NCBI RefSeq assembly: GCF_002865645.1
Contig: NW_020194518.1
Coordinates: 1,611,463 to 1,675,462, forward strand
Origin: Hyaloscypha bicolor E
Lineage: Eukaryota > Ascomycota > Leotiomycetes > Helotiales > Hyaloscyphaceae
Length of the DNA: 64,000 bases
Reading direction: 5' to 3'
In this document: positions 18,371-63,820 of the stretch, in pieces
How positions within the stretch are numbered: position 1 is the first letter of the stretch
How the letters are laid out: the number at the start of each line of letters is the position of its first letter
The notes under the pieces: generated by a model
The model's database searches: none
Told to the model about the DNA's origin: nothing
What the model saw: only the letters and a program-made list of their open reading frames with translations
Translations under genes and position numbers: made by a program

Positions 18371-18440
18371 ATAATGGATTAGCGTATAATAATAATGTAA
18401 TAACGCATTTTTCTCCATTACTTCTTTATATTGAGCTACG

Positions 18441-18720: not shown

Positions 18721-18758
18721 CCTTATATTACTTTTCTCTCTTTCTTCTCTTTATTACT

Positions 18759-21700: not shown

Positions 21701-23330
21701 GCCTACAACCCGTTAATTGACTTCCCGCTACCCTTAGTTAATCCTTACTATAATTACGGCCTCTTTTTACTTGGTCTTGGCCTTACGGATCTCTAGTAAA
21801 TATTTACGGATATTGCCCTGCCTGAGAATATCTTTAATTAGATCATAAGCTACCGTATGGCTAATCTGCAGGTCGATTATACCTATAAGATATTACTGGC
21901 GACCGTAATACAAGCCTAGCTAAACGTAGACTAGTACTCTTGCTTCTAGATAATTATGGTAGTAATTACGGACGATTTGCAGACGGCCTACTTCTATTTA
22001 CAAGGCCCGGGCGGGACTAGTAAGACGTTCCTTTATAAGACCCTCTATTACTATTACCGTAGCCAAAGTAAGGTAGTCCTATATATAGTATTAACGGGTA
22101 TTATAGCTCTCCTTTTCCCGGACAGACGTATATCTTATTTCTAGTTCCGGATCCCGCTCGAGCTTAATAAGTCGTCCGTAAGTATGATTACTAAGACGAG
22201 CCGGCTCGGGGCACTCTTGTAATCTATAGACCTAATTATCTGGAATAAGGTACCCATATAGTACAAGTACTACTTTGAGATAGTATACTAGCTAATGGTC
22301 GATTTACGGTCGGTTGCGGATAATATTCTCTTTAGAGGAATACCCGTAATTCTCGGGGGGAACTTTGCCCAGATCTTACTAGTAGTCCTATATGATTCGC
22401 AGGCTAATATGGTACGGACCTGCTTATAGCAGATATAGATCTGGCTATGGCTCTATTAGTTATTATTACGGATTAATATACGGGTCCGTAATAACCCGTC
22501 TAAATAGGATTTTATAGACTAGATTAGTTATCTATTATACGACCTGTTCTTGAATAGACAGATTATACTCCCGCCTTTTATTCCGTATACCTAGTTAGTT
22601 ACGGACCTGATTAATTACGTCTACCTGTGAGAATAACTCTTGCGGGCCCCGTATAACTACCGGGCCTTTAGTAGACGGGCAATCCTATTAATCCTGAATA
22701 ATATGGTCCGCAAGCTTAACTAAATAATCCTGGATATACTCCCTGGCCAGGAACGGACGTATTTCGTAATAGATTCGGCTAATATAAATAAGGCAGATCC
22801 TGAGATTACAGAATTACTACTAGAGGTCTTATAGAGTATCTATTTACCGGGTCTACTTCTTTCTAAGCTATGACTCAAGATTAATATACCCGTAATACTC
22901 TTATGAAATCTCTATCTGTAGGAAGGGCTATATAACGGGTTACGGATATTAATATATAGCTTTAGGAGATTCTTAATTCGGGTATAGCTACTAGGTAGTG
23001 ACTTTAACGGCCAGTTATGGACGATTCCATGGATTAAGCTCTAGTCTACGGATTAGTAACTGTCTTTTATGCTCTCCCGTAAGCAGTTTCTACTTGCTTT
23101 ATCCTTTATAATAACTATTAATAAGTTATAGGGCTAGTTATTTGAGGTAGTAGGGGTGGATTTATAGTTCCCGGTCTTTTCTTATGGCCAGTTCTATATA
23201 GCAGCCTTACGAGTAACCTTATAGGCAGGGCTTTATATTCTTTTATCCCCTAATATAAACCGTACGAGTAATATAGTATACCCAGAAATATTATAAGGTC
23301 TTACTTAGCTTTTAACTTACTTATAGCTGA
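18759..23330 (+). pseudogene. RepHel (Helitron replication initiator-helicase), full-length but dead
   Basis: Reading through stops gives a full RepHel protein. It starts MDPPRFYTSCRQNRP (an N-terminal Cys-rich domain common in fungal Helitrons). The Helitron_like_N region shows LSLSFTGSNYF and KPSFFITFMANP (about 20225-20340). The HUH motif should read LPHxH, but LPYIY is found (20519-20530), which fits His-to-Tyr by C-to-T. The Pif1-type helicase has Walker A GPGGTSKTFLY (22004-22033), the GIPVILGGNFAQI block near 22340, INKLxG near 23110 and a VYPEIL end near 23280. Dozens of in-frame TAG/TAA codons make it non-functional. Confidence 0.9.
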
Positions 23331-23448
23331 CTTTATATATTTATGGGCTATTTTTCTTCTTATATTATTTATAAAGGGTCCGTAAAGAATCCGTACCTGA
23401 TTTATATACTTAGCTAAAAGCCTTTATTATATTCCAAACTTACTCGGA

Positions 23449-23533
23449 ACAAGTTTAGGGCAAAATTATTACTAGCCCCGGAGCTTATATAGGGCCGCTA
23501 GCAATAATTTTAGCGAAGCGGCCCTAAACTCGT
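23449..23533. repeat. 85-bp near-palindromic element, copy 1
   Basis: Arms ACAAGTTTAGGGC and GCCCTAAACTCGT flank a second inverted pair, AAAATTATTACTAGC and GCTAGCAATAATTTT. The whole could fold into a long stem. It sits at the right end of Helitron 1. Confidence 0.85.
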
Positions 23534-23555
23534 CCTTTTCTATATTGTCCTATAT

Positions 23556-23870
23556 TCGGACTATCCTAAGCGGTTGGCTCCCAGTACTCCCTGGAAAAAG
23601 CGGGTCACGTAAGGAATACTAGAATCTCTCTCTTCTAGGGAATCGCGCATTGGAACATAATTACGTCCAAATCCTTAGGGCTTAGCTTAGGATAAGAGAG
23701 GAGAAGCTCAAGTATCTTTCTTTATATTTTAGTAGTTCTGGAATGCAAGGGGCTTTTATTACGATTTTTTAAAGCTCGGGAGGGGGCGAGGGAAATTCTT
23801 AAGGCACTGGCTAGCTCTCAAGGCTTCCAAAAATACAGGTCACGTGAGGAACACCAAAACTTCCATATAT
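23556..23870 (+). repeat. Helitron leader block, copy 2, with partial second leader
   Basis: Bases 23556-23830 repeat the Helitron 1 leader (GCGGTTGGCTCCC ... AAAGCTCGGG). They are followed by a copy of the start of the Helitron 2 leader (AAAATACAGGTCACGTGAGG, then GAACACCAAAACTTCC), which also occurs near 26949-26998. It is followed by low-complexity DNA instead of a RepHel frame, so this is a truncated or non-autonomous Helitron copy. Confidence 0.7.
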
Positions 23871-23879
23871 TACATACTA

Positions 23880-26820
23880 TAATCCTAATACCTAGTAAGC
23901 TTAAGGGAAGTTTTATAGATATAAGAGAGAGCTTTATAAGTAAGAGTAAGGCTATAAGGGTTTATATAAGGAAAGAAGAAGCTTTATAAGCTTATAAGAT
24001 AGCTTAAAAAAAAAAAAAATAAAAGAAAAAGCTATAATAAATTATATAAAAAAAGAAAAAGCTTTATAAATATAAATAAAGGCTAAAAAAAAGCTATAAA
24101 TAAGAATATAAATAATAAGTTACTTATAGAGATAAGTAAGACTTAAAAGAAAATATAAAAAGAAAGAGTTTTATAAATAAAAGTAAGGGCTATAATAAAT
24201 AAGGCTTAAAAAAGCCTATAAAAAAAGAAAAGAACTTTATATATATAAATAAAGCTATAAGAATTTATAAAAAGAAAAAGAGAATTTTATATATAAATAA
24301 AAAAAGCTATAATAATTTATAAAAAAAAAGAAAAAGCTTTATAAATATAAATAAAAACTAAAAAGAAATTATATTTAAGAATATAATTAATAAGAAACTT
24401 AAGGCAAATAAGGTTTAAAAAGCTTATAAAAGAAAAAGAGCTTTATAAGTAAAAGTAAGGCTATAGGAATTTATATAAAGAAAAAAGAAGCTTTATAAGC
24501 TTATAAGATAATTTAGAGAGAATTATAAGCAAGAAAAATAATTATAATAATTTATAAAAAGAAAAAAAAAGCTTTATAAGTATAAGAATATAAGTAATAT
24601 AAAATTTATAAAAGCAAGTAAAACTTAAAAGAACTTATAAAAAAAAAGAATTTTATAAATAGGAATAAGAGCTATAATAATTTATATAAAATAACTTTAC
24701 GAGTATAAATAAGGCTTAAAAGAGTTTATAAAAAAGAGAAAAGAGCTTTATATATATAAATAAGGCTATAAGAATTTATAAAAAGAAAAAGAAAGTTTTA
24801 TATATATAAATAAAAACTATAATAATTTATAAAGAAAAGTAAAAAGCTTTATAAATATAAATAAGGCCTAAAAAAGAATAAAAAGAAAAAGAAAAGAAAA
24901 AGCTAAGAAAGCTTTATAAAAATATTATTTCTTTTATTATTAAAAAGGCTTTTTATAAATTTTAATTAATTTTTTTATATAATTAATATTAGAAATAATA
25001 AATAAAAATAAACTAAATTTAATATATTAAATATAAGTTTATAAATATAAGTTTATAAATATAAGTTTATAAATATAAGTTTATAAATATAAGTTTATAA
25101 ATATAATATAAGTTTATAAATATAAGTTTATAAATATAAGTTTATAAATATAAGTTTATTAATATAATATAAAAAAGAGTTTTATAAATTAAATTAATAA
25201 AAGAAAATAAATTATAAAAAATATATTATATAAAAAATATAAATTAAATTATTTTATTAAAAATAAATTAAATTTTATTTTATTTTATTAATTTATAAAA
25301 AAAAAGCTTTATAAATATAAATAAAAACTAAAAAGAAACTATAAATAAGAATATAATTAATAAAGAACTTAAGGCAAATAAGAATTATAATAATTTATAA
25401 AATAATTTTATAAATATAAATAAGGCTTAAAAGATCTTATATATATATAAAATTATAAAAATATATAAGATTATAAGAATATATAAGATTATAAGAATAT
25501 ATAAGATTATAAGAATATATAAGATTATAAGAATATATATAAATAAAGGTTATAATAATTCATAAGAATAAAAAAAGCTTTAGAAATATAAATAAAGCTT
25601 AGAAAAAAATATAAAAAAAAAAAAGATTTAAGAAAGCTTTATAAAAATAAGTTTTATAAATTTTAATTAATTTTTTTATATAATTTGTCTTAGAAATAAA
25701 ATAAATATAAGTTTCTAAATATATAAGTTTTATATATAAATAATTAAAATATATAATTAATAATTTTAATAATTTAAAGAAATTATATTAAGTTTAAAGT
25801 TTAAGAATTTATAAATTAAATTAATAAAAGAAAGTTTATTATAAATTAATTAAGTAATATATTATATAAAAAATAAAAAATATAAAAAATATAAAAAATA
25901 TAAGAAATATAAGAAATATAAGAAATACAAGAAAATATAAGAAATATAAGAAATATAAGAAATATAAGAAATATAAGAAATATAAGAAATATAAGAAGTA
26001 TAAAAAATAAAAAGAAATATAAAAAAATATAAGAAATATTATTTAATTTATTTTATTATTTATTAAAATAACTTTTAAATTAAGAAATATATTTTTATAT
26101 ATTTAATAATATTAAGTTTATTAAAAATATTATATAAAAGGATTTTATATTAAAGAAACTTATATTAAAAAAATATTAACTTTTAATAATAATTTATTTT
26201 ATTATATAATATAATAGTTTTATATTTAAATAAAATTAAAGAAAAATATAAAGAAAATATTAATAAATTACTTTTATTAAAATCTTTCTTTATATAATAC
26301 TTATTAATAAAAGAATTTAAATCTTATATAAAGCTTAGTAAACTTTTATTTTTTTATAATTTATATATATTTAAATTAATATTTTAAATTAATATTCTTT
26401 AATTTTTTAAACTTATTTATTTTAGTTTTTATTTAAAGTACTTATATTATTAAAATTTAATAATTAAAAATATTAAGATTTATTTAAAAAATTATTAATA
26501 ATTATATTATAATTTAAAAGTTAATCCTTTTTAATAAATAATTAAAAAAAATTAACTTTAGAAAGGTTTTTAATTTAAATAATATTTCAAGTTTAAATTT
26601 ATTATAATTTTTATTTTATTAAATATTTTAATAATAATTAAATTTAATTTAATTCAAAATTTAAAAGAAATTATAAATAAAACATTTATTAATTTTAAAT
26701 CTTAATTATTAAAATATAAATTAAAAGAATAATTTTATATATTTATAAGCTATTTTCTTTCTTATATAATTTATTAAAAGTTTATAAAAAGTTTATTACT
26801 AAGAAGTATTATTTAAAGAG
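23880..26820. repeat. 2.9-kb almost GC-free low-complexity block
   Basis: The DNA is almost only A and T, with AAGCTTTATAA and AAGGCTATAA words recurring. Longer blocks repeat: the stretch near 23930-24005 matches 24440-24515, and 24354-24420 matches 25318-25385. Embedded short arrays are TATAAGTTTATAAA (14 bp, about 25030-25165), AAGATTATAAGAATATAT (18 bp, about 25455-25540) and ATATAAGAA (9 bp, about 25870-26030). No coding frame exists. It is probably heavily RIP-mutated satellite-like DNA. Confidence 0.8.
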
Positions 26821-26829
26821 CTACTCGGG

Positions 26830-26914
26830 ACGAGTTTAGGGCAAAATTATTACTAGCCCCAGAGCTTGCATAGGGCCGCTAGCAATAATTTTAGCAAAGC
26901 GGCCCTAAACTCGT
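26830..26914. repeat. 85-bp near-palindromic element, copy 2
   Basis: It has the same length and structure as 23449-23533, with cleaner ends ACGAGTTTAGGGC and GCCCTAAACTCGT. It lies immediately before the Helitron 2 leader. The two copies differ at only a few C/T or G/A sites. Confidence 0.88.
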
Positions 26915-26935
26915 CTATATAACATTGTCGTACGG

Positions 26936-29900
26936 TCGGACCACCTATTAAAAATACTAGTTACGGGATCTTACCTAAGTACGAACACCAAAACTTCCAG
27001 CCCTGTACGGTTCACTCTAGCCTCCGTTTCTCCTTTTATCCGGCCAGTAAGCTCTCTTTTATCGAAAATGGATTCATCTCCCCGTCCGTTTTGCCCGTAT
27101 TACAACCAGTACCGTTCCTTATCTCAATTCCCCCAAAATCGCCAGGGTAATGCCTATAGAACATGTCTATATTACAGGGTCTCTCTCTCCTCTCCTCTCC
27201 TCTCCTTTTCTTTTCCCTTATAAAGCTAACCTCTTTTCAGGCCCGCCAGAGGGAACACCGGTCCGCTCTTGCTGAGCTTGATCCTAATGCGCCCCGGCAG
27301 ACCCGTAGCGGTCCACGATAACCAGTTACGGGCGGGGATAATAACCCACGGCCCCGCAAGCGTATTCGGCGAACTAATGTATAAATCGAACGAGACCGTA
27401 TTCTGGCCGTAGTAAATCCTCTGGCTCCTCCTGCTCCTCCTAGCCCTTCTCCTTTACTACCCGGCTTCCGTTTACTATTTCGGCTTTTACTACCCCATAA
27501 TCTTGGCCCGATGAATATTAAGTGCGAGGATTATGTGGCGAGGCACTAGATATTAGAGGTACTTACGGGTATAGGATAGAAGTTTGAGCTCTGTTATAAG
27601 AGGGGGGATGTGGTAATAGACAAGTTACGGGCGCCCCCGCCCTTTTTACGGGCGCTTTTCGAAGGGGATAATCCGCAAGCCCGTAGCTTTCATTAGAATA
27701 TAAGGGCATATAACTCTATACTTGCTTTTACGTCCGTAAGCTATACTAAGGATACCCGTACTAACCTTTCTTGCGGTCTTTACTACTTTCAGATCTATAG
27801 GGAGCTGTTTTACTACCAGGGACCCTTAAAGCCAGGCTTGTAGTAGGTTCCGGCCTTTGCCTAGCTATTTTTTTATAATCCAGACTATATAACTAATCTC
27901 CGGTTATAGTACTGCCCGTAACTCGATCGAATTATTCTCTATAGCCTTTACGAGATACTTACGGACTGTGGTAATCCCTTTATACGGATCTATAAGACGG
28001 CCCGGGAGCAATTAGCTAGCCAAACGGGTCACTTTCGGATTTTTCTTAGCCCGTAGATATGCCTAATTCTCTAGTCTGGGGCAGATTATTGCCGCAAGAA
28101 CCTTCCTATAGCCACAGAGCTAGTAGGAATCCTTCCGGACGAGTTTACGGACGAGAGTTAACATGATATTCTTCTTATGATCCGCGAGCCTGGCTATTAA
28201 GGTCCGTAACTTTACTAGGTAGCTATTACCCACATAGCATATATGTCACTTTATTACGTATTCCTCTTTCTATATAGCAAATACGGATAGTACTATAAAA
28301 TGACCTTACGGGATGCCCGTTATACCTATTAACGGATCCGTTTGAAGTAGTGGCCCTTTTATAAGTTCCGTTTATATACCCGTATTCGCAAGGTATCTCT
28401 TCTCTTTTATGCTTGCCGGCTCTTTTAGTAATATATTATAGATACTTTTATTACCTATAAAACTATATTCCTTAATTAGCTTCGTTTATACTAAGACAAG
28501 ATCCGTATGGATATATATAACGGTTTAGCAAATACCTTAATCCGCAAAGATATCTTACTGGCTAATCTGGGCCATTAATTTATTCTTTCTTCCTCTTTTA
28601 TAGGCGGGAATCAGTTTATATAATAGCTTTTTCAGGACTTAATAGCTATTATTTATTATTTTGGAAAGCCTACCTTTTTTATTATTTTTATAGTAAACCC
28701 ATAATAGCCAGAGATTATCCAGGAGCTAGATAGCTTATAACCTATAGACCGGCCAGATCTAATTACTTACGTATTTCGACTTAAGGTCCAGGAGCTTCTT
28801 ACGGATCTAAAAAACCATATTTTCGGATAATATACAGGCTATATTTATATAATTGAGTACTAAAAGCAAGGGCTTCCGTATTTATACCTGCTTTTATTCT
28901 TATAAGTATCCGAAAAGTTTAATATACCTGAGTATATAGACAAGGTCATATATACTAAGCTACCGGATCCATTATAGGATCCTATAGGCGAGCTTCTGGC
29001 CTTGGTTACGAGTAATATATCCTATGGTCCGTATAGGAAGAACTATATACAGGCCCCGTATATAGTCTATAAAGAAGCTTATAGCCCGTTAGTATACTCC
29101 AAGAGGTTCCCAAAGGCTTTTACGGACCGTACCATAATTAATGAGGATAGCTATCCCGAGTACTACCGCCGGAATAACGGGCAAATATTTATAGTCTGTA
29201 AACCAGGCTTTCTAGGCCAGGAAGTTATCCGTAATAACTACTAGGTTATTCCGTATAATCCGTACTTCCTTTAAAAGTTCCGCTCGTATATTAATATCGA
29301 GGTTTATATATTTATATAAGTAATTAAGTATATTTATAAGTACGTATATAAAGGAGCGGACTATACTATAGTTATAGTTACGGCTACGGATAATGAGATT
29401 ACCCGGTATATATATGCCTGTTACGTAAATCTATATAAGGCTATTTGGCAGCTATTCGAATTTTCTATGTATTAGGAGTTCCCTCCTATTTAGTATCTTA
29501 TAGTTTATCTTAAGGAAAAGCAAACGGTTTACTTTTCGGATAATATCTCTCTTATAGCCCTGGCCGCAAAGACCGCAAATGCCCGTTTAATACTAATGGC
29601 TTTCTTTGAGTATAATGCCATATATAAGGATAGCCGGAAGTACTTATATTCCGAGTTTCCGGCCGAGTTTATATAGGTTCCAAAGACCCGGAAGTAGAAG
29701 CGTTACTAGCAGGGCAATAGCAAGCGGATCGGCCATATATATTACTATAGCCCTGTCTCAGGCGAGTAATACTACTTATGGCTCTTACTTATGGTTATTC
29801 GCGGCCTGCGGTTCTTTACGGATCTGTATTTAGTTAAGGGCATCCGTTACCTAATATACCAGGCTACCTGTATTACCTGCGGCTTGGCAGAAAATAACTA

Positions 29901-31700
29901 GGAGTAGTACTAGTATTTTAATAAGGCTATTCTGTTTATATCTATAGGTGGTTTACGGATATTATTCTTAACTAGCCTCTGCTAGCGGCTAATTACGGAC
30001 CCGTTAGCGATCTGGAACCGGTATAAATACTACTTCTATAATAATCTCTAGTACTAGCTTACTCGTAATAGTGGTTTCCTACTTCTACTTCTTAACTTGT
30101 ACTATAATTACGGCCTCTTTTTACTCGTATATAGGCTTACGGACTAGTAGTAGTCACTTGCGGACTATAGGCTCCCGTCTTTTATCTGGGATTAGACTAG
30201 TAGGTACCGTTTCTTATCCGTATTATATACTCTCGAGGACCAGGTATTACTTATAGTTATAATACGAGCCCAGCTTAATCCTAATTAGTAATTATACTTT
30301 ATAGAGATTATTATGGCTATTGAATTAGATCCGCAAATAGCCCACTTCTATTTGCAAGGGCCAGGAGATATAGGCAAGACATTCTTATATAAGGCGCTTT
30401 ATTATTACTTTTATAGGCAAGGGCAGATAGTTCTTTATATGGTATCTATAGGTATTATGGCTCTCTTACTACTAAATAGATATATGTCTTACTTCTAGTT
30501 TAAGATTCTAATTAAGCTTTACAAATCGTCTGTAAGTTCTATTATAAAGCAGAGCGCCCTTAAATAGATTCTCCGGTCTATAGATCTTATTATCTGGGAC
30601 GAGGTACTAATATAGTATAAGTACTGCTTTGAGGTTATTTATTAGCTCTTAGTGAATTTATGGTCTATAGCGGATAATATTCTCTTTAGAGGGGTGCCCG
30701 TAATTCTCGGTAGGGACTTTGCCTAGATTCTTCTAGTTATACCGTATGGTTTACGGGCTAATATTATTACTATATACCTTTAATAATTATTTATTTGGCT
30801 ATGGCTTAAGCAGCTTTACTTACGGACTAATATACGGGTCTATAAGGGCGAGAATAGCCAGGAGTTTGTCTGCTAGATTAGCGAATTGCCTAATAACCCA
30901 GACCCTAATATAATAGTAGTAATTCCGGACTATATAAACTAGCTAGTATTAATTACGGATCTGATTAGCCATATTTATCCCCTAGATCTTCTCTCTCGGG
31001 CCACTACGGATTCGTTAACCTTCTATAGGTAGTACCTCTTAACTATATTAAATATTACGGTCTTAGAGCTTAATACCTATATTCTTGGATATTTACCAGG
31101 CTAATTACGGATATACTAATCGGTAGATTCCCTGGATACGGACAAGTTTTCGAGTAATAACCTATATGAGCTATTTATAGAGTAGCTATAAAGCATTAAT
31201 CTTCCTTCCTTATTGCTATCTTAGCTTACTCTCAAGATCGGGGCTCCGGTACTACTCTTATAGAACCTATATTCGTAAGAAGATTTATATAATAGGACCC
31301 GGATAGTAGTTATAAGCTTACGGGTATATTATATCGAGGCCCGCTTGCTTAGAGGGGATTTTAATAGCTAGTTACAGGTAATTCTACGGATCAAGCTATC
31401 TGCTATAAATACTAGCCTGGGAATTGCCCTCTCCCGGAAGTAGTTCCCGGTCCGTTTGTGCTTTATAATAACTATTAACAAGTTATAAGGTTAGTTCTTT
31501 TATACCGTTAGTTTGGACCTACAAATACCCGTATTTGCTTACGGGTAGTTTTATATAGGGGTTTCCCGTACGTTATCCGTAGAAGGCTTAAGTATTCTTC
31601 TACTATACGAGAACCTGTCTAGAATACTTAATATAACTTATCCTAAGGTCTTAGCTAATTTACTTTAGTACTTTATCTCTTGCGGGTATCTTACGGGTGC
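26936..31700 (+). mobile_element. Helitron 2, autonomous type, RIP-degraded
   Basis: A leader (26936-27060) is followed by a second RepHel frame in the same orientation as Helitron 1. Candidate 3' hairpins lie further right at 32203-32250, so the element may extend to there. Sequence similarity to Helitron 1 is clear in protein but weaker in DNA, so they are different family members or old copies. Confidence 0.72.
27068..31655 (+). pseudogene. RepHel of Helitron 2, dead
   Basis: The frame starts MDSSPRPFCPYYNQYRSL. A small intron with a CTAAC branch site ends at 27240. The Helitron_like_N block reads LSSSFIGGNQF and KPTFFIIFIVNP (about 28590-28695). The HUH site reads LPYLY (28876-28887), again both His positions lost to Tyr. 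Walker A is GPGDIGKTFLY (about 30358-30390), the FRGVPVILGRDFA block is near 30690, and the C-terminal RKxFPVRLCFIITINK block near 31440. Many in-frame TAG/TAA codons are present. Confidence 0.88.
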
Positions 31701-32202
31701 CAGGTGGCCTTACGGGTCGGTTTGAGGGGTTTGGGGGTCCGTAACTATCCGTAACTACCTATAAGTATCCGTATCTATCTGTAAGTAACTTGTAATTATT
31801 ACTTCGAATATTTTAGGGCTCAAACGGACCGAGAATACCATGCTATTAGGTATTAAAAGTATATACCTCTCCTAGGTAATCCTTTATGGGATTTATAACT
31901 CCTCACTCTGCTCACCCTCCTCCCTCTCCTCCTCCCTCTCCTCCTCCCTCTCCTCCTCCTTCTCTCTCTCCTCCTCCTCCGTCTCCGGCACCGAGTAATT
32001 CGTCCTCTCCTCCTCCTCCTCTAGTACCTCCGCCTCTTCTTTATAAAGAGCCGCTAGCTTCCCATAGAGCTCAGCGAAACGGCGTGCCCTCTGAGAGGGA
32101 GTAAGTGGGCGGCGGCGGCGAGGGGCGGCGGGGCGGCGGGCTATTTACATGTTAGTTATAATCCGTAATAATCCATAGCGGATATATATATACGAAGATA
32201 AT
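31701..32202. other. GC-rich low-complexity DNA right of Helitron 2
   Basis: A CCTCCCTCTCCTCCT-type pyrimidine repeat (about 31915-32040) would encode Pro/Ser runs, and a GGCGGCGG tract follows at 32107-32140. No conserved domain is seen. Confidence 0.5.
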
Positions 32203-32250
32203 CTGCCGGGAGCGACCCGGTCACCTATACGACTACCGGGAGCGACCCGG
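32203..32250. repeat. Two 30-bp-spaced CCGGGAGCGACCCGG hairpins
   Basis: CCGGGAGCGACCCGG occurs at 32206-32220 and again at 32236-32250. It can form a CCGGG/CCCGG stem with a 5-nt loop. GC-rich terminal hairpins are a Helitron 3'-end feature, so this may mark the end of Helitron 2; the bases after it do not give a clear CTRR. Confidence 0.5.
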
Positions 32251-32654
32251 CAAAGCGGACGTGGGTTGGCAGTAGCAGGGGCAGGAGCTGGAGCTAGAGC
32301 TGGAGGGGGAGGGGGAGCGGCGGCGGCGCCTATAAGTACCCGTTAGGTTAGTTACGGTCCGTAAAAGATCAGTAAACAGGTATAAAAAGCACTTACGGAA
32401 AGAATAACGGGCATCCTCACTGCCATAATAGCAGTTGGCATAGCTTCCTCTAAACTAACCAGCCACGACCACACATACCGTCCACACACCCGACCCGCCA
32501 GCACAATGTGTGCACCCGGCGGCATGAACTTGACTAACGAATTGGCCAAGCTCAGCCTCCAGGTTGGCAGGCCGGGCGGGGTTGGTGGTGCGGCCGGGCC
32601 GCAAAACAGGCACCCGCAGCGGAGCCAGCAAAGAGAGCGCCGTTATGGCGCGGG

Positions 32655-32885
32655 TTGGGCGGGCAGGCAGGGCAGGCAGGGCAGGCAGGGCAGGCAGGGC
32701 AGGTGCTGGTGCTGGTGCTGCTGCTGGTGCTACTGCTGCTGGTGCTGCTGCTATTGCTGCTGTTGCTGCTGCTGGTGCTGGTGGTGGTGGTGGTGGTGGT
32801 GGTGGTGGTGGTGCTGAAGCTGGAGCTGCAGCTGGGGCTGGTGCTGGTGCTGCTGAAGCAGCGGGAGCAGATGGTAGAGAAGACA
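32655..32885. repeat. GGGCAGGCA and GCTGGTGCT / GGT triplet repeats
   Basis: A GGCAGGCAGGGCA array (about 32660-32702) passes into CTGCTGGTG triplets and a pure GGT run near 32785-32812. All frames are open, giving poly-Gly, poly-Ala or poly-Val, and poly-Pro on the other strand. None is a convincing gene, although the repeat escaped RIP-type AT conversion. Confidence 0.8.
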
Positions 32886-32949
32886 TTCTACGGACCGTAA
32901 GGAGCGTTACAGGCCAGGGGCAGGCCCGTAGCGGGTATGGGGGTTGACT

Positions 32950-33480
32950 TACGTGTGCGTGTGTGTGTATGTGTTTATTAAAAGAAAGAAGCTTTGGAAT
33001 TCGAAATTAAAATCTACCTTATTTAGCTTACCTGGAGAATTTTTAGCCTTCAAAAAGTGAATTTTCAAAGTGAATTTAAAGTCAGTAAAGCTGATATCCC
33101 TTAAATAAGTGCCTGAGGCTTCCAATTAATCTCGTCCCTATACCACGCAACAAAGATCCACGGACTGCAAAAAGGTAGGTATGTCTTATAAGATCTTACA
33201 AGAGTTGTAAGAAGCCACAGGAAAGAATCTATATTAAATTATTAAGAAGTAAATGCTTAACGTGCCAAAATCGGCCACTTTTATCTCTGACAGGAGGAAG
33301 TTGTGAGGGGTTAGCGTGGTTTTAAGCGAAGCACTAGCCTAGACTGCCTATTTGACAATCACGTCCAAATCCATTAAGAACCAAGTACTCCTGCACCCCA
33401 CATCTCCTCTTAAATCGACCAGGTGCAAGGTCTTGCCTCAAGCACTTCGCGTCTCTGTTCAGCAGTCTCGCCCTCGAGAT
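32950..33480. other. Intergenic stretch
   Basis: It begins with a short GTGTGTGTG run near 32950-32970 and is then AT-moderate without supported genes. The broken ATPase gene starts near its end. Confidence 0.35.
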
Positions 33481-54862: not shown

Positions 54863-56065
54863 TCAACAAACAGTACACGGCACGTCGGTAATCGCCTCGG
54901 CAATAGCATAATACGCAGGCTTCCGTTGCAACGTCTCATTATAGATATCCGCACCACCCTGTCCCGTAAACGCAGACGGAACCCACGAATACTTATCATC
55001 GAAATCCCAAACCGTAATACCCCTACACCGGCGTCCAACCTGCATACAACTCGCAACAGAATCATAATAATTCTGCGCCTGGGTAGCCTCGCCCGCGGCT
55101 GTATAATATGGCGCCGCAACAAACCTCACATCCAGTTCTGTGATCGCGACGTCGACACCGAGATCCAGGAATTCTTTCTTTGCAGTGACCTGGGCTGCAA
55201 CGGATGGAGTGCCACCGACCTTGAAGTGCGATTCTAGACCAACGCCGTCGATTTGGATCTTCCGGGCCTGCAGTTCTTTGACCAAGTTGTAGGCGGCTGT
55301 TGTCTTGGTGCCAGGGCTCTCGAGCCCGTAGTCATTGTAGTAGAGCTTGATATCTTTGCCAGTCTTCTTTACGGCTTCTTGGGCGAATTGGAAGGCGAGG
55401 AAGAAATACTCGGGCCCGATGGTGTCATGCCACTGAAAAAGACATGGAAGTCAGCCGAAGGTCAAGAAGGAGTGAAGTGAGGCTGTACTTACAATGCTGG
55501 AGGAGAAGGTTCCGTCACCGTTCAAGGCTTCGTTTACCACATCCCATGAGTAGCAGCGGTTACCCCAGTGAGTGACCAAATTGTAAATATGGTTCTTCAT
55601 GACGGCTGTCAGAGTTGCGGCAGTCCAGGTACCGGATGTTACCCAATCGGATATTTGACTGGACCAGACGAGGTTGTGACATCGGACCCGCATTCCATTC
55701 TTTTCAGCGAGGTTGAGAACATAATCTCCTCCTGTGAAGTTGAACACATTTTGTTGGGGCTCGGTATACATGAACTAAAACCTATTAGAACCTCATCAAT
55801 TTTTTTCTTGGGTACAACAGCTCACCTTCATCATGTTGGCAGGGGTGATCTCTCCAAAATTCTTAGGGTTAGTCAAGATTCTCAAGTAATCTTTATCCGT
55901 CTGTTCAGCAGTCCCCGGAATATCTGCAGCTGTGCCAAACCAAAGTTTTCCGTTGTCCCGTGCAAGATCATTCAGATATCTTGGGCCGGTTGGACGGTGT
56001 GGTGCTGATATCGCAGTTTGCAGGGAGGCGAGAGCCACCAAAATGGTGGCAAGGAAAGAATGCAT
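54863..56065 (-). CDS. Secreted GH10 endo-1,4-beta-xylanase
   Basis: Three exons, 56065-55826, 55774-55493 and 55432-54863, encode 363 aa. A signal peptide [21 protein letters not shown] leads into [18 protein letters not shown] and the GH10 barrel. [19 protein letters not shown] and [14 protein letters not shown] carry the acid/base Glu in WDVVNEA, and VAITELDVR has the nucleophile Glu. The end is [18 protein letters not shown] and then PCTVC. It hydrolyses plant-cell-wall xylan outside the cell. No CBM1 module is attached. Splices are canonical and in phase. The gene appears intact. Confidence 0.95.
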
Positions 56066-56690: not shown

Positions 56691-57008
56691 CAGGGCAGTG
56701 GCCTAGAAATATAGGGGGCTTTAGTGGTTGAATCCAGCAGAAAGTGGCCTGAAAGTGGACTTGTAGTTCAAATGCCCTGTAGTCCCGTCACTTTATGCCG
56801 TGATCTTCGTAACTATGACAGAATCATGAGATCATGATTGAGTTTTAAAATGTAGCTTGAGCGGTGTAATAGAAGTTTTCCGTTTAATTATTGAATAATT
56901 TCAAGTGGCCATTATAAATTGAAACGGTGATCAAGCGGTGGTTTACCAAGGCTGAGTTACACCCCTGCAACCTAAATCTTAAGATCTGGGTCCCGAACCA
57001 CTGCCCTG
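56691..57008. mobile_element. Short inverted-repeat element (hAT-like MITE), with a nested Tc1-type end
   Basis: CAGGGCAGTGG at 56691-56701 is repeated inverted at 56998-57008 (CCACTGCCCTG). CAGGG-type ends are usual in hAT elements. No clear 8-bp duplication is visible. Inside, at 56769-56809, is a third copy of the terminal repeat of the 61289-63371 element (ATGCCCTGTAGTCCCGTCAC...), suggesting nesting or shared ends. Confidence 0.5.
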
Positions 57009-57499
57009 AAAACAACAGTTGAACTAGATATAAAAGTAGCCAATGGCTAGCACTTGGATAAATGTGAGAGCGGCTTGGATATAGCCGTGGTAACCCCGTT
57101 GTTACCCAAGTGGTTCACGGATGAGACCATATTTGCAAACTGATCGATTCTTAAAAGTAAAAGGTACCTGCGCTAGGACTCCCACCAGTAGCATCCAGTT
57201 CCATATTTCTCATTGGTACGTAATACGCCTTCCCCAATAGTGTGCTTACGTGTTTGGATTATCGAGATCCTCCCAGTAACCTCTCGCTTGTCCGGGCTTT
57301 GATACTTCCTCCTCTCCGGCCGACAGAATACATCCCCCCCCCCCCTACAAGTCTCCCACAAAAGCTCTTGTGAGACTAACACCCCATCCTCCCGCAAATC
57401 AATCCACCCAGTCCAATGACGACACATATGGCTAAGAAGGATATATTACTAGTTCTGGGCCAGTCAGCTGGTATCCTCTATATTAACGTGAGTGTCTCC

Positions 57500-57652
57500 C
57501 TAAGCCTTTACCCTATCGCGCAGGCAGCACATAAGCACAATGAGGACGGGGATTAACACAGCAGAAACGACGCCCCCAATCTCCATGTTGCTCAGGCCCC
57601 TTGCGAAGATGTGTGAGAGGCGAGTGAGGACTTCATCGTTTATGGAAGGCAT
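57500..57652 (-). CDS. Micro-membrane-peptide gene A
   Basis: The unspliced frame gives 50 aa. It begins MPSINDEVLTRLSHIFARGL, has one hydrophobic segment (about 28-43, VVSAVLIPVLIVLM) and ends in a basic CCLRDRVKA. The N-terminal motif matches the paralogues C, D and F. A good intron (GTAAAG donor at 57511, GCTGAC branch, CAG acceptor at 57455) would change the end to RDRN with a stop at 57449, 48 aa. A single-pass membrane peptide with cytosolic basic end is predicted; no function is known to me. Confidence 0.65.
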   Translation of the reverse strand: MPSINDEVLTRLSHIFARGLSNMEIGGVVSAVLIPVLIVLMCCLRDRVKA

Positions 57653-58306
57653 GTTGTGTATGTATTTGCTAGGCGTGAGTTGGTTTGACTTCCCTTCCCG
57701 CCTCCGTTCTAGTTGCGTTTGAATGACGTGCGAATAGCTGAAAGCTGCTGAAATGGTTTGGGTCGAGTCTCTCTAAGCACTTTGCTTGAGAGGTTGTGGA
57801 GACAAGTTGATTGATCGAGATTGGAGAAAGGGAGTAAGAGCCTGAGATAGATGGAAGGTTTTATATGCAGTGGTCTGAGAAGAGAAAAGTTGTTGATTTG
57901 TTGTTGAATAACTTCTTGCTCAAATTCCAAAGCATTCAGGCTGCTTAGGAGGAGAAGAGGGGCTTGTAATTCGGTGAAGAGGTGAGCTATGAATCATTTC
58001 TCACTGTCATGGAAAGGTGTCACAGGTTCATCGAATTAAATGACTGTCCAGTGTATATCTATTAGAACAATGTAAAGTTCCCCAGAGTGTCCTTGGCCAT
58101 CTTCGCCGGCGTATTTTCTCGAAATAAAAAGCCAGTGGCTAGCTACAATTCCGAAATCTACTTGTGATCACGAAGAGACAACTTCTGGCGACTTAAAGAG
58201 AGTCAGCTTTAGCTTTTAAGCATGCTTGAATGCGATTAGATAAGGCGTGTTTACTTGACCTCTTATCCTTTACAGCAGGAGGACCATATAATGAAAGCTA
58301 GGAGCA

Positions 58307-58429
58307 GAAGCCCACGAGGAATTCCAGAGCGGTGCCTGCGATAGCTCAACCAGGAAGGCTCTAGTCTCGGACATAGAGATGAGCGAAGTCACCAATGTGA
58401 GACATGAGTTTGTGGTTTAGAGGCGCCAT
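58307..58429 (-). pseudogene. Micro-membrane-peptide copy B, decayed
   Basis: It starts MAPLNHKLMSHIGDFAHLYV, then R-D and TAG at 58371-58373. Beyond that the frame reads SLPG, a second stop and AIAGTALEFLVGF, which is the expected membrane segment. Two stops break it; otherwise it aligns to copy C. Confidence 0.65.
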
Positions 58430-59103
58430 ATTTCTTCTCATTCAGAATGACCTAGTATAAAGGATTAACTTATTATTACTTTTGCTATAATTATGGGTTT
58501 AGAGTGTATGGTCTCTATTATATCCTGGATTGACCTCAACCCAGTTCTTATTACTCGAGTCAAAATATTTGAGTGAGAGGCAAGAGGCAACTTTATTCGA
58601 TTCTGAAACTGGACAGATAAAGCGCTGTCCAACAGGGATGGAAGGGGTCGTCTAATGTGTCGAGCAGTCGGTATTTCGGAGTTGATCAGGGCACAGCGGA
58701 AGCCAGTGGTTCAACCTGCTTAGCAGATGAAAAGTTTAGATGACATTTGCAACACTAGATTGAGAGAGTCATGTATCAGTTCTCGCGTAACCATTAAGAA
58801 GGCACAGAGTCATGTTATATCAGATTGATTCACGTGCCCCTTTTTAGAGCTCTGAAGAGTTTTGGAAACTCATCGATTCAGAAATGTGCCAGACCTATCT
58901 GACTGTAAATCTTTTCCTGGTCCCCCCCCCCGCCCAGGTTGTTGTCTTAATTGCCTAATAGAAAGATCAGGTTTCGCTCCCTTTCACCGCTCGCAGCGAG
59001 TGCTAAAAGATCTTTATAACCTAAAGAGCCCACGGTTACAAGCCTGAAAGATGTTAGCATTAGGCACCCAGGAAGAGTTTCTTGAATCATGCTTTACCTG
59101 CCG

Positions 59104-59253
59104 TCACCTTCTTCCAGTTAGCCTAGCTCCAAAGCAACCAAGGAGCATGACACCAACAAAAACTCCAAAAATAATGCCTGCCTGTGCTCCAGGGGAGATT
59201 TCTCGTGCGTAGATGTGAGCGATATGAGAGAGTTTGTGGTTTAGTGGCGGCAT
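59104..59253 (-). CDS. Micro-membrane-peptide gene C
   Basis: The frame encodes 49 aa. It starts MPPLNHKLSHIAHIYAREIS, followed by a Gly-rich membrane segment (GIIFGVFVGVMLLGCFGA, with GxxxG spacing) and a basic LTGRR end. The stop is TGA at 59104-59106. A likely intron follows: donor GTAAAG just after the stop, or GTGACG just before it, then CTAAC branch and CAG acceptor at 59044. If the GTGACG donor is used, the frame continues into a second exon ending at about 58947 with a hydrophilic tail. Which form is made needs transcripts. Confidence 0.75.
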   Translation of the reverse strand: MPPLNHKLSHIAHIYAREISPGAQAGIIFGVFVGVMLLGCFGARLTGRR

Positions 59254-59897
59254 ATTACTTGATTGGTGAGACCGGTTATCTGGATGGATGCGTTTACTAA
59301 AGTGTTGACTTTCTGTGTGGTTTTTAGTGTTGCTGATCTGGGTTTAGTCGCTTTATTGTTCTTCCGAGTAATTGATATGTTGTCTGAATAGGCAAGGGCA
59401 GCTTGTTCAGATGTCAAAATTGGTTATATAACAGGGAAGGATTTATACGACCAATTGAGCAATTATTGTAAGATTTTACTCGAATTGGCGTTCGACCCAA
59501 AGCTAAGTAACTCACTCCAGTGGGCAGGGATTGTAGCACGAAATCAAGTGTGCCATAGAGTCACTGCCACATACTCGAAGATTACAAACACTACACCTTA
59601 CACATTGATTCACACGGAGTTCTCTTAAAGTTCCAAAAGTTCGTGCTCATCGATTTCAAGACTGCCAGTTTCCGATTGGAAGACTTTCCCAACGTGCACC
59701 TAAACCCCTAGCCTTGGTAACCTAACCTTGTTGTCGGGGCGGTCTTCAATTATAATGTCAGGTATCGCTCCCTTCGTTTATGAACACTCGCTCCACGTCC
59801 AGAATGACTCTAAGTCCTGAAGAGAATATCGTCGACAGATTACCGCAAGTCAGCATATGGCAAGCTGGAAAGACTTTCATGATTATCTTGATCTCAC

Positions 59898-60059
59898 CTA
59901 AAATTGGCGTGTAATATTGCCAAACCAAAGCACCAAAGCACCCAAGGCAATGACACCAAAGATACCGGCCACAACATAGGCTGCGACGATTCCACCGGAG
60001 ACATCTCGTGTGTAGATGCGAGTGATGTGAGATAAGACTTGGTCATTGAGTGGCGGCAT
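59898..60059 (-). CDS. Micro-membrane-peptide gene D
   Basis: The frame encodes 53 aa. It starts MPPLNDQVLSHITRIYTRDV, followed by SGG and a membrane segment of about 23 residues (AAYVVAGIFGVIALGALVLW) and FGNITRQF. The stop TAG is directly followed by a strong splice donor GTGAGA (59897), with a CTGAC branch and CAG acceptor at 59817, so the intron lies in the 3' UTR or the stop arose at the exon end. It is the closest paralogue to copy C in the first 20 residues. Confidence 0.75.
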   Translation of the reverse strand: MPPLNDQVLSHITRIYTRDVSGGIVAAYVVAGIFGVIALGALVLWFGNITRQF

Positions 60060-60689
60060 ATCCCTCGTAGTGGGAGATTTTTTTTATCGACTATTTTGTC
60101 GTTGCCCCTTCTTGAGACGAGTTGTAGTGTGTCCTCGGATGTGTCTAGGTATGGGAGAACCGATTTGTTGTTTTTGAGCAGATGCGTTTTTGAAAGTTCG
60201 AGTGACAAGGCGGAAGCACGTATTGAATAAAACTTTATCACAAATTAAACAGTAGCTATGTGAGCAGTAGCTATGTGTGAATGAAGGAAGTTTCAAAAAT
60301 TCGGACTTTTGGAGGCAATTCAATTTCAAGTGTGAATGTTTGGCAGAGGCTTTAGGGCATCGATTTTGAGGCATTTGATCACTCATAACTTGGGATCCAA
60401 AAAATCGCAGTACGTTATGGTTATCCTTTTTAAAAGTGCAAGTGTTTCTCAGACATCGTGGATAATTCTCTAAACTTCATTGATTTTAAGACCGTCTAAT
60501 TGCGCTCTCTTCACTCTTTTTCAACAACTTTCATTCCCTGGGAACTATATAACCCCTCCCGTCACGATTTGCCCGGAGAGAAGATTATTTGAACCCATGG
60601 AATTGTGACGAGCAAATTCGAGCATAACTCAGTTCTAGCTAACCTCCCGGTCCCGCCCAAGGTCTTCGAGTTTGTCGGGTTCAGAAAGG

Positions 60690-60830
60690 TAAGATTACAA
60701 CCAGATGTTGCGATGCGAGCAATGATGAAAACACTAACAGACCCTCTACCAGAGCGATGAATACAATAGTATCACTCGAAGCCGCTCTCTTGGAGATGTA
60801 AGATATGACTTAGTTGTTGAGTGGCGCAAT
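60690..60830 (-). pseudogene. Micro-membrane-peptide copy E, decayed
   Basis: The start codon reads ATT in place of ATG, then APLNN, a TAA stop, VISYISKRAAS and a hydrophobic TIVFIALVEGLLVF. The N-terminal motif is recognisable but lost Met and gained a stop (a codon now TAA). Confidence 0.6.
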
Positions 60831-60949
60831 ATTGCCTCTCTGCTAAATTGATATATTAAGTCAATGTCGGTCGAGTTCGCCAAGATGGATTGAAAAAGAG
60901 TATGCCCCTATTAACCCCCTATTCAGCTCGCATAGCATTTCTAAACTAA

Positions 60950-61288
60950 AATGATCCGTACAAATTAGTAATTTTGTACACGACTTAAGATCAACTCTAT
61001 TATATATATATATATACTAGTATCCTTCTAGGGCTACCTTAGAAGGGTGCTTATACAGTTAAGAGTTTAATTCCCATCTGGCCCCCCTTCCCCCTCTCTT
61101 AAGAAGAATATGTTTTTAATTTTCCGTAAAAGAAGACCCTTTTCGGCTATGTTTTAGCCCCCAGCGCATATATATAAGACAGGCAAGAAGCATATCCCTT
61201 TATTGCCCTCATAACCGCTTAAGAAGTATATCCTCACCTTTTAATATTTATTTATACGAGTAGTACAGGAGTCGCGTGTCTTAGCCTA
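60950..61288. other. AT-rich flank of the Tc1-like insert
   Basis: It contains a (TA)n run near 61001-61015 and looks like repeat debris between the array and the transposon. No gene is seen. Confidence 0.4.
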
Positions 61289-63371
61289 CGGAGACAGCGG
61301 CATAAAGTAACGGGAATACAGGGCATATTTTATAATATATTAATAAAGACTACTAATAGGCCCTATAGGTCTTAGTTTCATCTCCCCATAATAATATCCT
61401 AGTTCCTATAAGCCCTATAAGGGTCCCCTAAAGTAATTAATTAACCCTGTACCCCCTCAAAAGAAGTAAATAGGAGCCAAACCATAATATTAAACTATAT
61501 TAATATATAGCTACCTTCTTCTGGCCTTTCTTTCTATCTTCTTTATACTTATTTCCCCCTTCCAAATAAATTATCTCTTATATATAATCAGGAATTACTA
61601 TAATTTACTCTTAAATCTTACTTTAGGGAAGATCCGCCTAGTATTTCTCTTACCTTATTCTGAGCTTTTTTCTATTACTTATAGGCCCCTGTCTAGTAGT
61701 TTCCTTTTTTATTTAAAACTATACTTTCTTAATTATATTAAGATTAGATAAGTTTTCTAGCTAAAATATCTTTATAATCTTTTATAAATTATAAATCTCT
61801 TTTTAGTAATATAACTTATAAGCTAGTATATTATTCTTTTATATAATTATATTAGAGTAATTCTTTTAGTACTTTCTTATAAAAGATAAGAGCTTCTTAA
61901 TTAATATCCTCTTCTAATATTAATACTAATTAATTTCTTTTTATTTCTTTTTTATAATAAAGGCTCTAGTTTTCTTATTATATTTCTATATCTTTTATAT
62001 ATTTCCTAATATCTGGCTATAGATATTTTTCTAATTCTTTAACTATTTCCTTTATTTCTTCTCTTATTTTTATTTATTAGCTTTTTTAATTAATGAATTC
62101 CTTATATTAAGATTAGCTTTATATTCTCTCTTTTTCTTTATAGTTTCCTTTTCTTATATATAATAAGGCCCTTTCTTATTAAAAGAAAAAGCTTTCTAAA
62201 ATATAAATTTAGAAAAGCCTTTCTATTTTCTTTATATATAATACTTATTATATATTTCTTTAGATAATCTTTATATATATTTCTTATTTTTTATATCTTC
62301 TAATTATACTATAGTCTTATTTATAAAAATTATATTTTTCTAGTTTTCTAATATCTAGTATATTTGTTTTAAGTATTATTTTAATTACTTTTTTTTATTA
62401 AACTTATTTAGTTTAGGCTTTATTATTAATTTATACTAAAAATAGCCTATTTATTTAAAGACTTTCTAGATAGTTCTAGAAGTAATTTTATACCTGTACT
62501 TTCTTATTTCCTTTATAATTATAGTATAAGAAAAGCCTCTTATAGTCGAGTTCTAAAATATAATCTTTAAAATATATTTAATTATATTAATTAAAATTAG
62601 AGGTCTTCTAAATTATAGTATATTTAGAATATAACTTATTTCTAAAGGCATATTCTTATTCTCTCTCTAGCTATACTCTCTAGTAATAGCATATAATTAA
62701 TAAATAATTATTTTGGGTACTCCTATAGCCTTTTTAATCTGAGCCAGAGTCTTTCTATTCTCAAGTATATAGATTGCCTTGATTCTTGTACTAGTAAAGT
62801 ACTCTTTATATATGGCAGTAGAAATAACAAGTTTAGTTAAGGGTACAGGTTATATGGGAAGTACCAAAAGTAGTGGGCTTGAATTATCGTCTTTATCCTT
62901 GTCTTCTAAATTAGTAGGTAAATTATACCATATATTGTCTTTATCTTTAGTATACTTATTAGAATACTCGTTATTAGACGAATCAGGGGGTGACGAGAGC
63001 TCTGATTACCTATCTAATAAATTAGGGAAGTCAAAAAGACCTCCAAAAGTAGCCATAATAAATTAAAGCGAGAGTAAAGAAGAATAAAGGATATAGGAGA
63101 GCTTAATAGGGGGGTAAAAGCTCAATTTACCCTGCTACCGATTACGGACGTACGTCTAAAAATATAGGGGCTAAGGCCCTATAGAACGCTGTGGCTTAAT
63201 ATAACGTCCTAATCGAGCTGCATGAGGTTTCAGTAAGCCTTCAGGGGTCTTATGGCCTTGACTTAGTGTAATTACAGTGGCTGCAGGGCCAAGTGAGACA
63301 CTATAGGGCATATTAGAGGGCCTAGAATTATGCATGCCCTGTATTCCCGTCACTTTATGCCGCTGTCTCCG
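61289..63371 (-). mobile_element. Tc1/mariner-like transposon, RIP-degraded, TA target duplication
   Basis: Inverted ends of about 38 bp, starting CGGAGACAGCGGCATAAAGT, lie at 61289-61327 and 63334-63371. Both are flanked by TA (61287-61288, 63372-63373), the mariner target duplication. Inside, the minus strand near 62690-62780 reads AIYILENRKTLAQIKKAIGV, a Tc1-type helix-turn-helix. Further left are stop-riddled pieces with the Tc1 transposase layout. The interior is very AT-rich with CpA lost, so the transposase is dead. It is inserted between micro-gene copies E and F. Confidence 0.75.
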
Positions 63372-63673
63372 TATATTCTTCCTGAGCCAAGTAGCAGAAA
63401 CATAAATCGCTTGATTTCTTGTCAATTTTCACGCAGCAAATCCATGGGAACATATCATGTAAGCTCATCGATTTTTAAACGTGTCTAAGGCCCCTCTAAT
63501 CACAATACATGCTCCAGCTCTCACGGCTCCTAGTGCACCCATCCAGTCTATGGAGGGTAAAAGTGAAAGGTTTTCCGCGTTGAACGCCGTCTTCTGAACC
63601 ATAAAATCGTGGAGCCAAGTCGACAGCATAGGTCATCCTGGAAACCCTTTCGAGAACACCTGGTTTTGTTCAA

Positions 63674-63820
63674 TTATCCTCTTCGCTTCAAGAAATATAC
63701 AAGCCCAGCCATTAGAATGGCAATGATGGCTACTGACCCAACACCTAAGCCGACCGTAGCTCCAGCGGAAAGGCCTCTTTCCGAGATGTGAGACATGACT
63801 TGGTTGCGGAGTGCAGGCAT
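63674..63820 (-). CDS. Micro-membrane-peptide gene F
   Basis: The frame encodes 48 aa. It starts MPALRNQVMSHISERGLSAG, followed by a Gly-rich membrane segment (TVGLGVGSVAIIAILMAGLV) and a basic YFLKRRG end with TAA at 63674-63676. It shares the motif with A, C and D but is three residues shorter before the membrane. It lies at the right edge of the window, so the array may continue. Confidence 0.72.
   Translation of the reverse strand: MPALRNQVMSHISERGLSAGATVGLGVGSVAIIAILMAGLVYFLKRRG

What the first reader, a model, noticed from the sequence alone, without database searches (positions are those of the whole stretch)
57141..63820. Tandem array of at least six paralogous micro-genes for single-pass membrane peptides
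Four intact frames (57500-57652, 59104-59253, 59898-60059, 63674-63820) and two decayed ones (58307-58429, 60690-60830), all on the minus strand, share an N-terminal signature near M-P-P-L-N-x-Q-V-L-S-H-I-x-x-x-Y-x-R. All have one Gly-rich hydrophobic segment, and the intact ones mostly end in a basic or short polar tail. They are under 55 residues, so standard annotation would miss them. A conserved amphipathic start with a diverging membrane segment and gene birth/death resembles rapidly evolving membrane-active or signalling peptides. I do not know any described family that matches.
Basis: partly seen in the sequence, partly recalled or inferred. Interest (0 to 1): 0.92.

Follow-up and report, generated by a model that had tools for sequence, protein, structure and literature searches.

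The report
Fungal tandem family of membrane micro-proteins
A likely fungal genome carries nine copies in a row, seven with an unbroken frame, of a predicted gene for a roughly 50-residue protein that matched none of the family libraries searched, and that protein is predicted to cross the cell membrane once and likely acts as a small accessory helix for larger membrane proteins.

Summary
Nine related units lie head to tail on the minus strand: six in the window (57500-63820), three just beyond. Six are intact ATG frames (47-70 aa), one is open without a start codon, two are broken. A profile built only from database relatives finds all seven open frames at E<=1.9e-15 and nothing comparable in about 84 kb. 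Seven genome-wide protein searches find no clear copy elsewhere. Fifteen database proteins match single members (six of the seven open ones); 13 of 13 pairs tested align without gaps; 11 of 15 end at the same place. dN/dS within c6-c9 is 0.25-0.52, but about 1.1 for c3-c4. No convincing Pfam, NCBIfam or PDB match. Each protein has a short start, an R-x-x-[ST], a membrane segment with mostly small residues first, and a short, mostly basic tail. The amphipathic start is weak or absent. Best reading (inferred): a lineage-restricted family of plasma-membrane micro-proteins, N-terminus outside, packing by a glycine face against larger membrane proteins; Pmp1-like in action, not Pmp1 by sequence. 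Expression, location and partner are untested.

The parts
57500..57652 (-). c1: intact micro-gene, 50 aa
   Evidence: relatives P0006 (47 of 50 identical) and P0009 (45 of 50)
58307..58429 (-). c2: decayed copy, in-frame stop before the membrane segment
   Evidence: start region found by the relatives-only HMM, E 0.001
59104..59253 (-). c3: intact micro-gene, 49 aa, three GxxxG steps
   Evidence: relative P0008 (47 of 49 identical)
59898..60059 (-). c4: intact micro-gene, 53 aa
   Evidence: relatives P0004, P0005, P0007, P0010, P0014, P0015; AlphaFold helix 22-52 mostly confident, helix 5-16 weak
60690..60830 (-). c5: decayed copy without ATG, early stop
   Evidence: DNA match of its start region to c4; not recovered by the protein HMM
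63674..63820 (-). c6: intact micro-gene, 48 aa; the array continues past the window end with c7, c8, c9
   Evidence: relatives P0002 (47 of 48) and P0013 (39 of 48)
59606..59654 (-). shared upstream DNA block (ATCGATGAG ... GTGAATCA) about 400 bp before c3
58826..58877 (-). same upstream block about 450 bp before c2
57111..57148 (-). same upstream block downstream of c1, where no unit was found; possible remnant of a further lost unit
   Evidence: loss of a unit is inferred
61289..63371 (.). A+T-rich element with terminal inverted repeats of at least 26 bp and TA at both ends, between c5 and c6; not part of the family but explains the 2990-bp gap

Best explanation
The locus is a tandem family of nine related units, six of them complete open frames for predicted proteins of 47-70 residues with one strongly hydrophobic segment, which are predicted to sit in the plasma membrane with the start outside and the tail inside, and likely act as accessory helices that pack against larger membrane proteins through a glycine-rich face. 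Shown: nine units, their order and decay; relatives of six of the seven open members elsewhere; ends conserved in 11 of 15 relatives; no clear copy outside this locus in this genome; an excess of GxxxG steps over shuffles; small residues in the first half of the membrane segment in most members. Predicted: one membrane helix preceded by a short break at R-x-x-[ST]. Inferred: N-out orientation and plasma-membrane location (small residues in the outer half, long segment, mostly basic tail), and packing against a partner. Untested: expression, translation, location, partner. On this reading the copies differ in their membrane segment so that each can fit a different partner or tune the same one, and dispensable copies decay.
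For: Array and uniqueness. Relatives: 12, 14 and 7 hits, together 15 distinct proteins. Frame conservation: 13 of 13 pairs tested align locally without a gap (P0010 and P0015 not tested); substitutions in the six most diverged pairs, one per member, are more conservative than neutral simulation, combined p=0.0022; the residues upstream of the start in P0007 and P0003 switch frame relative to our DNA where the genes do not (read by eye). dN/dS 0.25-0.52 in six of six c6-c9 pairs. Ends conserved in 11 of 15 relatives. Membrane design: volume difference between the halves +34 A3 on average over eight hand-bounded segments, reached by 0 of 10,000 shuffles, the pattern Sharpe et al. 2010 describe for fungal plasma-membrane segments (PMC2928124; abstract and sections 9, 11, 12 read); GxxxG 10 observed against 4.0 expected in seven members, p=0.0014; tail charge at least that of the N flank in 9 of 9 proteins, strictly higher in 6 of 9; AlphaFold helix 22-52, pLDDT 85-95 for residues 21-50. 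The 20 weak PDB profile matches are membrane segments of DAP12, APP, EphA1 and EphA2 (best E 0.004), N-out proteins (recalled).
Against: No expression data and no partner. c3 lacks the volume asymmetry (-1 A3); c1 and c4 have no GxxxG. Charge difference is tied in three of nine. c3-c4 dN is about equal to dS over 44 codons (0.48/0.43) and exceeds it in the membrane segment (0.86/0.49). The substitution test gives p<0.05 in only 3 of 13 pairs, one of them above 0.03. P0007 is nearly as similar upstream of the gene as in it. Relatives were found as called open frames, which biases against stops and gaps. No relative of c4 in prokaryote or viral contigs (other members not tried). The relatives' DNA could not be read. 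A pmp1 null of Candida albicans showed no growth, filamentation or biofilm difference (PMC6521590, passage), so the model system for the proposed role is itself modest.
Confidence: 0.4

Rival explanations
1. The proteins are real single-pass membrane micro-proteins that assemble with themselves through the glycine zipper and perturb membranes: self-acting membrane-active peptides, kept as a diversifying set.
For: GxxxG excess; membrane segment has higher dN than the start in 7 of 7 paralogue pairs and dN above dS in c3-c4; copy gain and loss.
Against: No cleavable signal peptide and no Cys pattern evident by eye (no predictor run); dN/dS of the membrane segment is below 1 in six of six c6-c9 pairs (0.21-0.52); members have their own counterparts in relatives, unlike fast arms-race peptides.
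Confidence: 0.17
2. They are mitochondrial inner-membrane micro-proteins: the start is a cleavable targeting sequence cut at R-x-[LIV]-S.
For: R-x-[LIV]-S just before the membrane segment in 15 of 15 rows of A3 resembles an R-3 processing site (recalled); small single-pass subunits are common in that membrane (recalled).
Against: An acidic residue in the start of 15 of 15 rows of A3 and net charge only about -1 to +2; P0014 and P0015 have R-S-P-[ST] instead; no amphipathic moment above shuffles in c6, c8, c9, P0001, P0012; plasma-membrane-like volume asymmetry.
Confidence: 0.15
3. Relics: membrane-segment exons or promoter-plus-frame duplicates with little or no function left, most of the array decaying.
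For: Two broken copies and one without a start codon among nine; c3-c4 dN near dS; a generic resemblance to a membrane segment on contig C48 beside a frame that looks kelch-like by eye (E 0.03).
Against: Gap-free frames in relatives down to 62% identity and shared ends in 11 of 15, conservative substitutions, no constant upstream frame in P0007 and P0003.
Confidence: 0.15
4. N-terminus inside: a phospholamban-like regulator with a cytosolic R-x-x-S kinase site, possibly acting on the nearby P-type ATPase.
For: R-x-x-S in 17 of 17 rows of A4 and R-x-x-T in P0015; a P-type ATPase and an HMA-domain frame lie upstream of the array.
Against: Tail charge and volume asymmetry favour N-out; neighbourhood alone is weak, and other frames lie between.
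Confidence: 0.08

Closest known systems
Yeast Pmp1/Pmp2 plasma-membrane proteolipids (Pfam PF08114)
   Same: Very small single-pass membrane proteins with a basic tail (recalled); deletion of both lowers plasma-membrane H+-ATPase specific activity by half without changing Pma1p amount, as stated in passages of PMC6521590.
   Different: None of the 17 members of A4 nor five further rows matches PF08114, and the genome has no match over the family's cut-off (best E 0.6 on another contig; that search's 14 control genomes gave no match over the cut-off either, so it had no positive control). Pmp1/2 are a pair, not an array of nine.
Single-pass segments of DAP12, APP, EphA1 and EphA2
   Same: Small-residue first half of the membrane segment followed by a basic stop; profile match over the membrane segment only (E 0.004 at best).
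   Different: Animal proteins (recalled); resemblance is compositional, no homology claimed.
Phospholamban/sarcolipin-type micropeptides
   Same: About 50 residues or fewer, single helix; phospholamban has an R-x-x-S before the membrane (all recalled).
   Different: Opposite orientation is likelier here; not among the PDB or Pfam matches.

Membership tests
Pmp1/Pmp2 (PF08114) | match to the family profile over its cut-off | tested here: not met
   0 of 17 members of A4 and 0 of 5 further rows in Pfam scans; 0 matches over cut-off in the genome, without a positive control
[quoted passage not shown]
   needs co-purification
Pmp1/Pmp2 (PF08114) | one membrane helix with a basic C-terminal tail | tested here: met
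   a general feature, not proof of membership
Mitochondrial inner-membrane small subunits with cleavable presequence | amphipathic, basic start free of acidic residues (recalled) | tested here: not met
   D or E in the start of 15 of 15 rows of A3, net charge about -1 to +2; hydrophobic moment not above shuffles in c6, c8, c9, P0001, P0012, marginal in c1, c3, c4; no targeting predictor was run
Mitochondrial inner-membrane small subunits with cleavable presequence | R-x-[FYL] processing site before the mature part (recalled) | tested here: inconclusive
   R-x-[LIV]-S in 15 of 15 rows of A3, R-S-P-[ST] in P0014 and P0015
Exon of a larger membrane protein | coding frame continues past the ends in relatives | tested here: inconclusive
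   11 of 15 relatives end at the same place and the frame is not kept upstream in P0007 and P0003, which speaks against it; splice-like sites near the ends of c1, c3, c4 were seen by eye and no transcript was available
Any Pfam, NCBIfam or PDB family | match over curated cut-off, or a convincing PDB E-value | tested here: not met
   lowest Pfam E-value 0.0026, at 18 bits against a cut-off of 28.8; best PDB E 0.004 over the membrane segment only; NCBIfam covers prokaryote families

The most novel reading that the evidence does not exclude
A new family of plasma-membrane micro-proteins in fungi, kept as a tandem set in which each copy carries its own membrane helix, forming an interchangeable kit of accessory helices that tune different transporters or receptors by helix packing alone.
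Probability: 0.25. Interest if true: 0.75.

Novelty: new variant of a known kind. Interest (0 to 1): 0.5.

Why it matters
Small single-pass proteins are poorly annotated in fungi. A locus-bound set of seven open copies, six of which have their own counterpart in relatives, gives a compact system to ask how a bare membrane helix acquires and changes partners after gene duplication. It also shows that a tandem micro-gene family can be found from raw sequence when the curated libraries searched have no entry.

Tried and rejected
Amphipathic start as a family feature: not above shuffles in the c6-c9 group. Exon of a larger gene: I looked by eye for introns; splice-like sites exist near the ends of c1, c3 and c4, but shared ends and tails in most relatives speak against it. 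RNA family: 0 Rfam matches in the window. Fold search of the model against PDB: 0 matches at E<=10. Prokaryote genomes and viral contigs: no relative of c4 (only c4 was tried). AATCGATGAG alone is not enriched in the window (5 found, 4.63 expected), nor GTGAAYCA alone (3 found, 2.76 expected); only the spaced pair is: 3 in the window against 0 expected, 4 in the genome, 3 of them in the array, reversed-pattern control 0. The pattern was drawn from the array itself, so this points to shared promoter ancestry, not function. Literature: eight answered searches; five bear on this kind of family, and the rows listed (20 of 97, 15 of 88, 8 of 326, 10 of 206, and 0 papers) hold no description of it; for these only titles and abstract starts were seen, and the lists are capped. 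The organism was not identified; Hyaloscypha/Meliniomyces bicolor was a guess from genome size and is not claimed. In the GxxxG test the c9 stretch began eight residues early because the motif search caught an earlier R-x-x-S; the c9 start was cut short there for the same reason. The membrane segments were bounded by hand, and one search used P0001 in place of c7 for the volume and moment tests.
Full report
WHAT IS THERE. The window is C4:1611463-1675462 of an 82.0-Mb genome in 76 contigs. Genome size, A+T-rich stretches with RIP-like dinucleotide indices and a glycosyl hydrolase family 10 gene in pieces fit a filamentous ascomycete; this is inferred and the species was not identified. On the minus strand between 57500 and 63820 lie six related units, and three more follow just beyond the window. 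I call them c1 to c9 from low to high coordinate: c1 57500-57652, c2 58307-58429 (broken), c3 59104-59253, c4 59898-60059, c5 60690-60830 (broken), c6 63674-63820, then c7 (open frame, no start codon), c8 (47 aa) and c9 (70 aa). c1 to c5 are spaced 771-824 bp start to start; c6 to c9 are 340-411 bp apart. The 2990-bp gap between c5 and c6 holds an A+T-rich element of about 2.1 kb with terminal inverted repeats of at least 26 bp and TA at both ends; without its length the spacing would be about 0.9 kb.

IS IT MORE THAN CHANCE. An HMM built from 11 of the database relatives, and no window sequence, was run against 2,546 six-frame fragments of window, L004 and L005. It finds the seven open units at E 1.7e-24 to 1.9e-15 and the start of c2 at 0.001; the next fragment is E 1.3. 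c5 is not found by protein, only by DNA. The relatives had been found with window members, so this is a check of specificity, not a fully independent discovery. Genome-wide searches with c1, c3, c4, c8, c9, P0001 and P0015 (c6 was not used as a query) give matches only in this array, apart from one weak match (E 0.03) to a membrane segment on contig C48, beside a frame that looks kelch-like by eye. Counts from that tool are lower bounds.

RELATIVES. Three searches of a 5.8-billion protein database of public genomes and metagenomes gave 15 distinct relatives (12, two more, one more). By identity they fall to single members: c1 (P0006, P0009), c3 (P0008), c4 (P0004, P0005, P0007, P0010, P0014, P0015), c6 (P0002, P0013), c7 (P0001), c9 (P0003, P0011, P0012). 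c8 and the broken c2 and c5 have none. P0002 and P0006 report the same longest contig length (8758) and source, which suggests that the array is kept together there, but the contigs could not be read. P0001 begins with M, so counterparts of c7 with a start exist.

CODING AND SELECTION. Thirteen pairs (all relatives but P0010 and P0015) align locally without a gap, at 62-98% identity. Simulated neutral change gives less conservative substitutions than seen: in the most diverged pair of each member p=0.0035 (c4-P0014), 0.028 (c6-P0013), 0.072 (c1), 0.161 (c9), 0.28 (c7) and 0.70 (c3), combined p=0.0022; over all 13 pairs, three are below 0.05. All relatives were found as open frames, which biases against stops and gaps. 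Upstream of the start, the residues of P0007 and P0003 switch frame relative to our DNA once and twice, while the genes do not (read by eye). P0007 is nearly as similar upstream (48 of 54, counted by eye) as in the gene (50 of 53), so that pair alone says little. Eleven of 15 relatives end where our copy ends; the exceptions are P0009 (runs 12 residues on), P0010 (changed tail), P0014 (one residue shorter) and P0015 (changed tail). P0014 and P0015 also begin ten residues further upstream. Among c6-c9, dN/dS is 0.25-0.52 over codons 2-42 in six of six pairs. dN is higher in the membrane segment than in the start in all six, as is dS, and the ratio stays below 1 in both parts (start 0.28-0.86, segment 0.21-0.52). 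c3-c4 gives dN 0.48, dS 0.43 over 44 codons, with the segment at 0.86/0.49 and the start at 0.20/0.35. These values rest on few codons and are rough.

ANATOMY. The start is 18-21 residues long; the only invariant columns in the 17 rows of A4 (P0003, P0007, P0010, P0015 and c7 left out) are M1, R18 and S21 in c4 numbering, giving R-x-x-S; P0015 has R-x-x-T. Then follow a membrane segment of 21-26 residues and a short tail, longer in c9. AlphaFold gives a weak helix 5-16, a break at 17-21 and a helix 22-52 for c4 (mean pLDDT 76.5, about 58 in the start, 85-95 over residues 21-50). The first half of the membrane segment has smaller residues than the second: mean difference 34 A3 over eight hand-bounded segments, reached by 0 of 10,000 shuffles; c3 is the exception at -1. 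Sharpe, Stevens and Munro (PMC2928124; abstract and sections 9, 11, 12 read) report this pattern for fungal plasma-membrane segments: longer, with glycine and valine towards the outside and leucine towards the cytosol. GxxxG steps number 10 in seven members where shuffles give 4.0 (p=0.0014), carried by c3, c6, c7, c8, c9; c1 and c4 have none. Tail charge equals or exceeds that of the N flank in nine of nine proteins (seven members, P0014, P0015), strictly in six.

SURROUNDINGS. A spaced pair of DNA blocks, ATCGATSAG-N15..44-GTGAAYCA, occurs three times in the window, all in the array, and four times in the whole genome; the two blocks alone are not enriched. It stands about 400-450 bp before c2 and c3, and once after c1 where no unit was found. 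This suggests duplicated promoters and a lost unit (inferred). Upstream of the array, beyond the window, are frames of a secreted-looking protein (by eye, no Pfam match), and a P-type ATPase with an HMA-domain frame beside it; downstream is the family 10 glycosyl hydrolase.

HOW IT MOST LIKELY WORKS. Shown: family, conservation, design of the segment. Inferred: N-terminus outside, plasma membrane, packing of the glycine face against other membrane helices, copies specialised by their segment. The nearest known way of working is that of yeast Pmp1/Pmp2, which support the plasma-membrane H+-ATPase (PMC6521590, passages seen; the same paper found no phenotype for the Candida albicans null). Membership in that family by profile was tested and not met. 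Self-association, mitochondrial location, relic status and a phospholamban-like inward start remain open at lower weight.

NOVELTY. No curated family searched gives a match over cut-off and PDB gives only weak membrane-segment matches; five literature searches listed nothing on such a family in the capped rows seen. Single-pass micro-proteins are a known kind; a nine-unit tandem set with counterparts of most open members in relatives is a new variant of it.

Noticed in passing
61289-63371: A+T-rich element (17-37% GC in 500-bp steps from 61001 to 63000) with terminal inverted repeats of at least 26 bp, TA at both ends and RIP-like dinucleotide indices, between c5 and c6; a related end lies at 56772-56811 (88% over 40 bp).
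   Followed up: partly
24001-26000: Stretch of 11% GC with strong GC skew (0.50), far below the rest of the window.
   Followed up: no
18001-33000: Long block with RIP-like indices (TpA/ApT 1.2-1.6), possibly decayed transposons.
   Followed up: no
54863-56065: Glycosyl hydrolase family 10 gene in several frames on the minus strand, next to the array.
   Followed up: partly
L004:4199-7670: P-type ATPase frame and an HMA-domain frame upstream of the array, probably one gene.
   Followed up: partly
L004:491-974: Only 127 bp separate the stop of c9 from the start of c8, so the two may share one transcript; c9 has a tail of about 29 residues conserved in three relatives.
   Followed up: no
L004:154-294: c7 carries an Asp in its membrane segment where its relative P0001 has Gly, and lacks a start codon; the frame is otherwise open.
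   Followed up: partly
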